A DNA stretch of 64,000 nucleotides from Clostridia bacterium (GTDB lineage Bacteria > Bacillota > Clostridia > Lachnospirales > Anaerotignaceae): assembly GCA_022786605.1 (NCBI GenBank), contig JALFWW010000019.1, forward strand, positions 78,779 to 142,778. Direction: 5' to 3'. Shown piece after piece: positions 3,010-3,303 of this stretch; positions within the stretch are counted from its first letter, which is position 1, and each line of letters begins with the position of its first letter. A program made the position numbers and the translations under genes. The notes under the pieces are model-generated. The model saw only the letters and a list, made by a program, of their open reading frames with translations. It was not told the origin of the DNA and searched no databases.

Positions 3010-3029
3010 AAACAAAATCAGCATTTTGT
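3010..3029 (+). repeat. left inverted repeat (IRL) of candidate invertible segment
   Basis: aaacaaaatcagcattttgt; exact reverse complement of 3284-3303. Confidence 0.9.
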
Positions 3030-3087
3030 CTAAAGCGAAAGAAATCACTTTCCCATTTGTGTTCGGCATTTAAAAAATAAATGGATT

Positions 3088-3115
3088 TTTATACCATTTT
3101 TTATAAGAGTTTGAA
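3088..3115 (-). promoter_or_regulatory. possible weak leftward promoter inside the segment (TTCAAA-16-TATAAA)
   Basis: minus strand -35 at 3110-3115, -10 at 3088-3093; AT-rich context so may be fortuitous. Confidence 0.35.
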
Positions 3116-3124
3116 CAAAAAAAA

Positions 3125-3157
3125 GAAAGACCGAAAAAAAATTCCGTACGGTCTTTC
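3125..3157. terminator. bidirectional intrinsic terminator inside the invertible segment
   Basis: gaaagaccg...cggtctttc stem with T-rich tracts on both sides. Confidence 0.75.
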
Positions 3158-3185
3158 ATTTTTGTGCCTAATTTCGACAAAAGAC

Positions 3186-3214
3186 TTGCGTCCATGTGCA
3201 AAAAAAGTTATAAT
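3186..3214 (+). promoter_or_regulatory. rightward promoter inside the segment (TTGCGT-17-TATAAT)
   Basis: Perfect TATAAT at 3209-3214, 17-bp spacer to TTGCGT at 3186-3191; currently points away from the LRR gene and toward the recombinase 3' end. Confidence 0.6.
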
Positions 3215-3227
3215 TTCCCTGTATACA

Positions 3228-3251
3228 ATGAAATACATGCGTGTATTTCAT
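3228..3251. promoter_or_regulatory. perfect 10-bp dyad just downstream of the rightward promoter
   Basis: atgaaataca-tgcg-tgtatttcat. Confidence 0.55.
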
Positions 3252-3283
3252 CCATTTACAGTATAAAACAATATGTATTTATA

Positions 3284-3303
3284 ACAAAATGCTGATTTTG
3301 TTT
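3284..3303 (-). repeat. right inverted repeat (IRR) of candidate invertible segment
   Basis: acaaaatgctgattttgttt; reverse complement of 3010-3029; overlaps the last 2 nt of the recombinase stop codon. Confidence 0.9.

What the first reader, a model, noticed from the sequence alone, without database searches (positions are those of the whole stretch)
3010..3303. Invertible promoter (phase-variation) switch upstream of a BspA-like LRR surface protein, with its own tyrosine recombinase
Seen directly: a perfect 20-bp inverted repeat (3010-3029 aaacaaaatcagcattttgt; 3284-3303 its exact reverse complement) brackets 254 bp. One IR abuts the stop codon of a complete tyrosine recombinase (R, HxxR, H, Y motifs present). 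The other lies about 90 bp upstream of the ATG of a signal-peptide LRR surface protein. IRR overlaps the last 2 nt of the recombinase stop, and because the IRs are identical, inversion would leave both coding sequences intact. Established: in Bacteroides, C. difficile and other gut bacteria, site-specific recombinases flip promoters between 20-30-bp IRs to switch surface structures on and off. Inference: this locus is a self-contained switch for a surface adhesin.
Basis: partly seen in the sequence, partly recalled or inferred. Interest (0 to 1): 0.92.

Follow-up and report, generated by a model that had tools for sequence, protein, structure and literature searches.

The report
Flip-switch promoter for surface adhesin
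A gut bacterium of the Anaerotignum group carries a 254-base DNA segment, flanked by matching inverted repeats and its own recombinase, that very probably flips to turn a large cell-surface protein on or off; it belongs to a widespread family of such switches, many of which also drive a conserved, catalytically dead copy of the recombinase.

Summary
In detail: a perfect 20-bp inverted repeat (3010-3029 / 3284-3303) abuts an intact tyrosine recombinase and lies 91 bp upstream of a surface-protein gene. The longest such repeat in 20 shuffled windows is 15 bp. Loci with 43-62% identical recombinases carry the same cassette just past the recombinase stop codon (41 usable segments, 177-328 bp). Each has a locus-specific repeat and a promoter-like site, usually with a hairpin. 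In related rabbit-gut loci the flanks align in parallel while the segment is inverted, so relatives do flip. No read data or same-species second orientation were available here. The window's segment looks OFF: TTGCGT-17-TATAAT (3186-3214) points back into the recombinase. The target is a 1600-aa SLH-anchored LRR protein. The kind is known: inverton group 139 / invertase group 35 of Clostridia (PMC11892184) is probably the same family, but I could not test that. New as far as I could find: in many relatives, including two other switches in this genome, the first gene behind the switch is a conserved, monophyletic recombinase paralogue lacking the catalytic residues (dN/dS 0.08-0.16). It may report switch state back to the invertase. 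The window locus lacks it.

The parts
3010..3029 (.). IR-L, 20-bp inverted repeat AAACAAAATCAGCATTTTGT; itself a dyad (ACAAAAT-CAGC-ATTTTGT) as expected of a tyrosine-recombinase core site
   Evidence: only copy pair with fewer than 2 mismatches in the genome
3284..3303 (.). IR-R, exact inverted copy; overlaps last 2 nt of the recombinase stop codon
3030..3283 (.). 254-bp invertible segment
   Evidence: between the repeats; equivalent segments of 177-328 bp in related loci
3186..3214 (+). promoter-like TTGCGT-17-TATAAT, now pointing into the 3' end of the recombinase (antisense), away from the surface gene (OFF reading); after inversion its -10 lies 180 bp before the ATG
   Evidence: position equals that of the promoter in related loci; ON form. 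The consensus scan did not list it (only 3 of 6 matches in the -35)
3125..3157 (.). 9-bp-stem hairpin with T-rich tails on both strands, predicted bidirectional terminator insulating the surface gene from recombinase read-through in either orientation
   Evidence: fold, about -15.8 and -15.5 kcal/mol on the two strands; similar hairpins seen in most related segments
3302..4147 (-). tyrosine recombinase (281 aa), the presumed invertase; catalytic R140, K164, H227xxR230, H253, Y262 present
1..2918 (-). switch target: signal peptide, DUF285/LRR_5 (PARCEL-type) repeats, Listeria-Bacteroides repeats, SLH domains; 1600 aa in full, C-terminus outside the window (L024:6898-11700)
2928..2933 (-). AGGAGG ribosome-binding site of the surface gene
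   Evidence: sequence
2964..2980 (-). small hairpin plus T-rich tail in the surface gene's leader, possible attenuator
   Evidence: 2 terminator-like sites found, 1.2 expected by chance in the region

Best explanation
A self-contained phase-variation cassette. The tyrosine recombinase at 3302-4147 binds the two dyad repeats and inverts the 254-bp segment. The segment carries one outward promoter and a hairpin that terminates on both strands. In the orientation seen, the promoter fires back into the recombinase gene, antisense, and the surface gene is OFF. After inversion the promoter reads through IR-L and a short leader into the SLH-anchored LRR surface protein (ON). The hairpin keeps recombinase transcripts out of the surface gene in both states. 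Shown: repeats, intact enzyme, the same cassette in relatives, and inverted segments between related loci. Inferred: flipping in this strain, promoter activity, terminator function, antisense damping of the recombinase in OFF, and the adhesin role.
For: Repeat significance. The cassette sits behind 41 same-clade recombinases with inner length 177-328 bp and repeats that differ between loci but match within each locus. Inversion seen by comparison: L027 vs L028, recombinase 84.5% and downstream 81.5% identical plus/plus, inner segment 88% identical but minus; L029 vs L028 and L026 vs L027/L029 likewise. The promoter -10 lies mostly 20-70 bp from the recombinase-side repeat; 34 of 41 segments read OFF, 4 ON (L026, L028, L030, L053), 3 undecided. 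Targets sampled are giant SLH surface proteins or, in the rabbit loci, DUF4422 and LicD-like polysaccharide genes. Read-level flipping is published for a group of Clostridia invertons paired with one tyrosine-recombinase group (PMC11892184).
Against: No reads or second orientation for this species could be obtained. A second, weaker promoter-like site (TTCAAA-16-TATAAA) points at the surface gene in the present orientation, so it may not be fully OFF. Promoter calls rest on consensus scoring of AT-rich DNA with a weighting I chose; the stock scan did not list the OFF promoter. The loci showing opposite orientations carry recombinases only about 60% identical to the window's, and shorter repeats.
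Confidence: 0.88

Rival explanations
1. The cassette is real but locked in this strain: repeats and recombinase are relics, expression is fixed.
For: Broken or interrupted copies occur in the genus: frameshifted recombinases in L051, L052 and L050, an apparently interrupted segment in L050.
Against: Here the repeats are perfect and the recombinase keeps all catalytic residues; close homologues (94, 86, 86, 85% identity) also do.
Confidence: 0.08
2. The repeats are attachment or resolution sites of an integrative element and the recombinase is its integrase, not an invertase.
For: The enzyme is XerC/D-like and could act on such sites.
Against: No element lies between the sites, only 254 bp with a promoter and hairpin; repeats are inverted; the cassette recurs with surface genes behind it in different chromosomal places; related loci are inverted, not excised.
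Confidence: 0.02
3. The segment is a fixed bidirectional terminator and promoter region whose repeats never recombine.
For: A strong two-way hairpin lies inside it.
Against: The hairpin does not need 20-bp repeats 254 bp apart; the repeats co-vary between loci; inversion is seen in relatives.
Confidence: 0.02

Closest known systems
Inverton group 139 with invertase group 35 in Clostridia (PMC11892184, Microbiome 2025)
   Same: Tyrosine recombinase next to the segment, enriched in an orientation its promoter cannot drive; 32 of 33 invertons in Clostridia; sizes agree (Clostridium sp. D5: 26-bp repeats, 205 bp inside; Intestinimonas butyriciproducens: 14-bp repeats, 227 bp inside, from the coordinates in the paper); flipping seen in reads.
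   Different: Sequence membership could not be tested (motifs and tables are in supplements not held). The main-text parts I read do not mention a second, catalytically dead recombinase, SLH targets or a conserved OFF bias.
Invertible promoters of Bacteroidales capsule and surface loci
   Same: Promoter between inverted repeats switches surface structures.
   Different: From established knowledge, several of those loci share one recombinase acting in trans; here each switch has its own adjacent enzyme and its own repeat.
C. difficile RecV-controlled switches (e.g. cwpV, flg)
   Same: Tyrosine recombinase, Gram-positive gut bacterium, large surface protein as target.
   Different: From established knowledge, RecV acts at several distant sites and the cwpV and flg switches work through the leader rather than by flipping the promoter; here the promoter-like site itself is inside the segment and the enzyme is adjacent.
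S. pneumoniae PsrA invertase
   Same: Tyrosine DNA invertase; NCBI calls one 68% identical homologue PsrA.
   Different: PsrA rearranges hsdS coding sequences (papers listed); here a promoter segment is flipped.

Membership tests
Invertible promoter with adjacent tyrosine invertase | short segment bounded by inverted repeats beyond chance | tested here: met
Invertible promoter with adjacent tyrosine invertase | intact tyrosine recombinase next to the segment | tested here: met
Invertible promoter with adjacent tyrosine invertase | promoter inside, able to drive the neighbour in one orientation | tested here: inconclusive
   consensus match at a position conserved across loci; activity not measured
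Invertible promoter with adjacent tyrosine invertase | both orientations exist | tested here: inconclusive
   met for related loci L026/L028 vs L027/L029; no second orientation available for this species
Invertible promoter with adjacent tyrosine invertase | inversion depends on the recombinase | not testable with these tools
   needs deletion or reconstitution
Inverton group 139 / invertase group 35 (PMC11892184) | repeat motif and recombinase sequence cluster | not testable with these tools
Serine DNA invertases (Hin/Gin/Mpi) | resolvase-type catalytic domain | tested here: not met
   Phage_integrase and its SAM-like domain only
BspA-type LRR surface proteins | LRR_5/DUF285 repeats and signal peptide | tested here: met
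   domains; signal peptide read by eye from the N-terminus
SLH-anchored S-layer-associated proteins | SLH domains at the C-terminus | tested here: met
   PF00395 E=2.3e-30 on the full protein

The most novel reading that the evidence does not exclude
These switches are feedback devices. In many relatives, including two other switches of the same genome (C21, C13), the first gene behind the flippable promoter is a recombinase paralogue that has lost the catalytic Arg, Lys, both His and Tyr, yet is one ancient clade under purifying selection. Being made only in the ON state, it could join the active invertase on the repeats and lock or bias the switch, so that the switch senses its own state. 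In the OFF state the promoter runs antisense into the invertase gene, a second state-dependent brake that would also apply to the window's locus.
Probability: 0.45. Interest if true: 0.78.

Novelty: new member of a known kind. Interest (0 to 1): 0.5.

Why it matters
It adds SLH-anchored LRR surface proteins of uncultured Anaerotignum-group bacteria to the set of probably phase-variable surface structures, and gives coordinates, promoter and predicted ON/OFF states that existing metagenomes can test. The wider family (a relative at E<=1e-40 in 40 of 394 genomes sampled from the order) offers many natural pairs of invertase and site. The dead recombinase behind the switch would, if it regulates inversion, be a form of heritable-state feedback for which I found no earlier description in the papers searched.

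Tried and rejected
Viral contigs held no relative. The metagenome scan gave two near-identical contigs (L032, L033) with the same orientation, so no flipped pair there. Very close homologues (94-85% identity) exist as proteins, but their DNA could not be fetched. Orthologous loci inside the genus (L035/L051/L052, L036/L043) share one orientation. The apparently inverted operon in L045 borders a run of Ns, so it was not used. The stock promoter scan did not list the OFF promoter because its -35 matches only 3 of 6 positions; comparison across loci rescued it. No Rfam element in the first 20 kb. No other copy of the repeat with fewer than 2 mismatches in the genome, so no sign of trans targets. 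The pseudo-recombinase was considered as a decaying gene and rejected on dN/dS 0.08-0.16, monophyly and a fold match.

Full report
Observation. The repeat, its coordinates, the 254-bp spacing and the overlap with the recombinase stop codon are exactly as reported. It is far beyond chance: the next perfect inverted repeats at such spacing in the window are 12 bp, and shuffled windows give at most 15. Each arm is itself a dyad, ACAAAAT-CAGC-ATTTTGT, the shape expected of a tyrosine-recombinase core site with an asymmetric centre (sequence; inference from the enzyme family).

Neighbours. The 281-aa protein at 3302-4147(-) has Phage_integrase and SAM-like domains, is closest in the PDB to archaeal XerC-like, XerD and XerA recombinases, and keeps R140, K164, H227xxR230, H253 and Y262, all invariant among 22 aligned sequences. 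The gene on the other side begins at 2918(-). Fetched in full from the same genome it is 1600 aa with DUF285/LRR_5 repeats, Listeria-Bacteroides repeats and SLH domains, so it is probably held on the cell wall by SLH domains. Upstream of the recombinase lies spo0A. Spo0A and pseudo-recombinase homologues carry names from Anaerotignum and Chakrabartyella, so the host is probably an Anaerotignum-group member of the Lachnospirales (inference). Its recombinase relatives at about 60% identity include rabbit-gut MAGs.

A recurrent cassette. Recombinases of 43-62% identity were fetched from the genus, family, order and two public contig collections. In 41 segments (the window's included) an inverted repeat starts within about 120 bp of the stop codon and encloses 177-328 bp. 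L071 has a 700-bp segment and was not scored. The 41 include the four rabbit loci L026-L029, whose short repeats were placed by eye. Loci without a complete cassette end in contig breaks, Ns or apparent interruptions (L025, L045, L046, L050, L056). The repeat sequence differs from locus to locus but matches within a locus, with most mismatches in the outer arm. Six distant XerC/D-like recombinases treated alike gave none, though two of these had under 200 bp to scan. In a tree the window's recombinase falls in a supported clade of 12 invertases (97/95).

Promoter and orientation. A promoter-like site, nearly always with 17-bp spacing, recurs inside the segments, its -10 mostly 20-70 bp from the recombinase-side repeat. 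By consensus scoring 34 of 41 point back into the recombinase (OFF), 4 point at the downstream gene (ON) and 3 are undecided. In the window it is TTGCGT-17-TATAAT at 3186-3214(+), OFF. A weaker site, TTCAAA-16-TATAAA, faces the surface gene and is the main doubt about the OFF call. A hairpin at 3125-3157 with T-rich tails on both strands probably terminates recombinase transcripts in either state.

Evidence that the segment flips. In the rabbit MAG loci L026-L029 the recombinase side and the downstream side align plus/plus (L027/L028: 84.5% and 81.5%), while the segment between aligns only in reverse (88% over 239 bp); L028/L029, L026/L027 and L026/L029 behave the same way. L026 and L028 are ON, L027 and L029 OFF. 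This is comparative evidence for the family, not for the window's own strain.

Known work. Read-level inversion has been reported for inverton group 139, 32 of 33 in Clostridia, nearly all beside one tyrosine-recombinase group, in Intestinimonas and Clostridium sp. D5 among others (PMC11892184). Segment sizes and the position of the recombinase agree with ours. I could not read the motifs, so membership is likely but untested. The locus is therefore filed as a new member of a known kind.

Unexpected: a dead recombinase behind the switch. In L026-L030, L035, L036, L037, L042-L044, L051, L052, L007 and L070 the first gene downstream of the switch is a second recombinase-like protein; L045 also has one, but behind an N gap and in an inverted operon. 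The catalytic positions are lost or not conserved (R to Y/S/H, HxxR to SCLR or RCLL, the last His and the Tyr replaced by a long helix). The model (pLDDT 88) still matches XerA and lambda integrase. The genes form one clade (100/100) with dN/dS of 0.08-0.16 between species, so they are kept, not decaying; two very similar rabbit paralogues gave 0.37. Where contigs reach far enough, they lie behind an invertase with a switch; one (L039) follows the surface gene instead. Two of the three switches in this genome have one; the window's does not. Being made only in the ON state, such a protein could act as a state-dependent partner or inhibitor of the invertase. That is an inference and the most novel reading here.

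Judgement. The finding is confirmed and well explained as a phase-variation cassette, with the caveat that no reads of this strain were available. As a single locus it is a solid but ordinary member of an emerging family; the dead recombinase in sister loci is what a specialist would find surprising.

Noticed in passing
L035:6142-6954 (G000 C21) and L036 (G000 C13), same genome: Catalytically dead, conserved recombinase paralogue as first gene behind two other invertible-promoter switches, each followed by a 1382-1463 aa surface protein.
   Followed up: yes
L118-L123 (genome G077): Six contigs each carry a pseudo-recombinase followed by a surface protein or a pilin-like operon; most contigs begin or end at or just before the pseudo-recombinase, as if assembly broke at the switch. 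Possibly many switches in one genome.
   Followed up: partly
L046 and L047: Near-identical invertases and switch starts in genomes of two different genera, suggesting horizontal transfer of the cassette.
   Followed up: no
L042:6177-6596: An 86-bp inverted repeat around one switch contains a tRNA-like T-arm stretch as well as two copies of the recombination site.
   Followed up: no
L026-L030: In rabbit-gut relatives the same switch precedes polysaccharide genes (DUF4422, LicD-like) instead of an SLH protein.
   Followed up: partly
window 12788-13258 (-): IS200-type transposase-like ORF; a similar reading frame lies beside the switch in L045.
   Followed up: no
window 4521-4573: Terminator-like hairpin downstream of spo0A whose arm contains AAACAAAATCAG, 12 nt shared with the inverted repeat; probably chance.
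   Followed up: no
L038 (genome G006): Two complete switches in tandem, each with its own recombinase and repeat, ahead of 2579-aa and 1182-aa surface proteins.
   Followed up: partly
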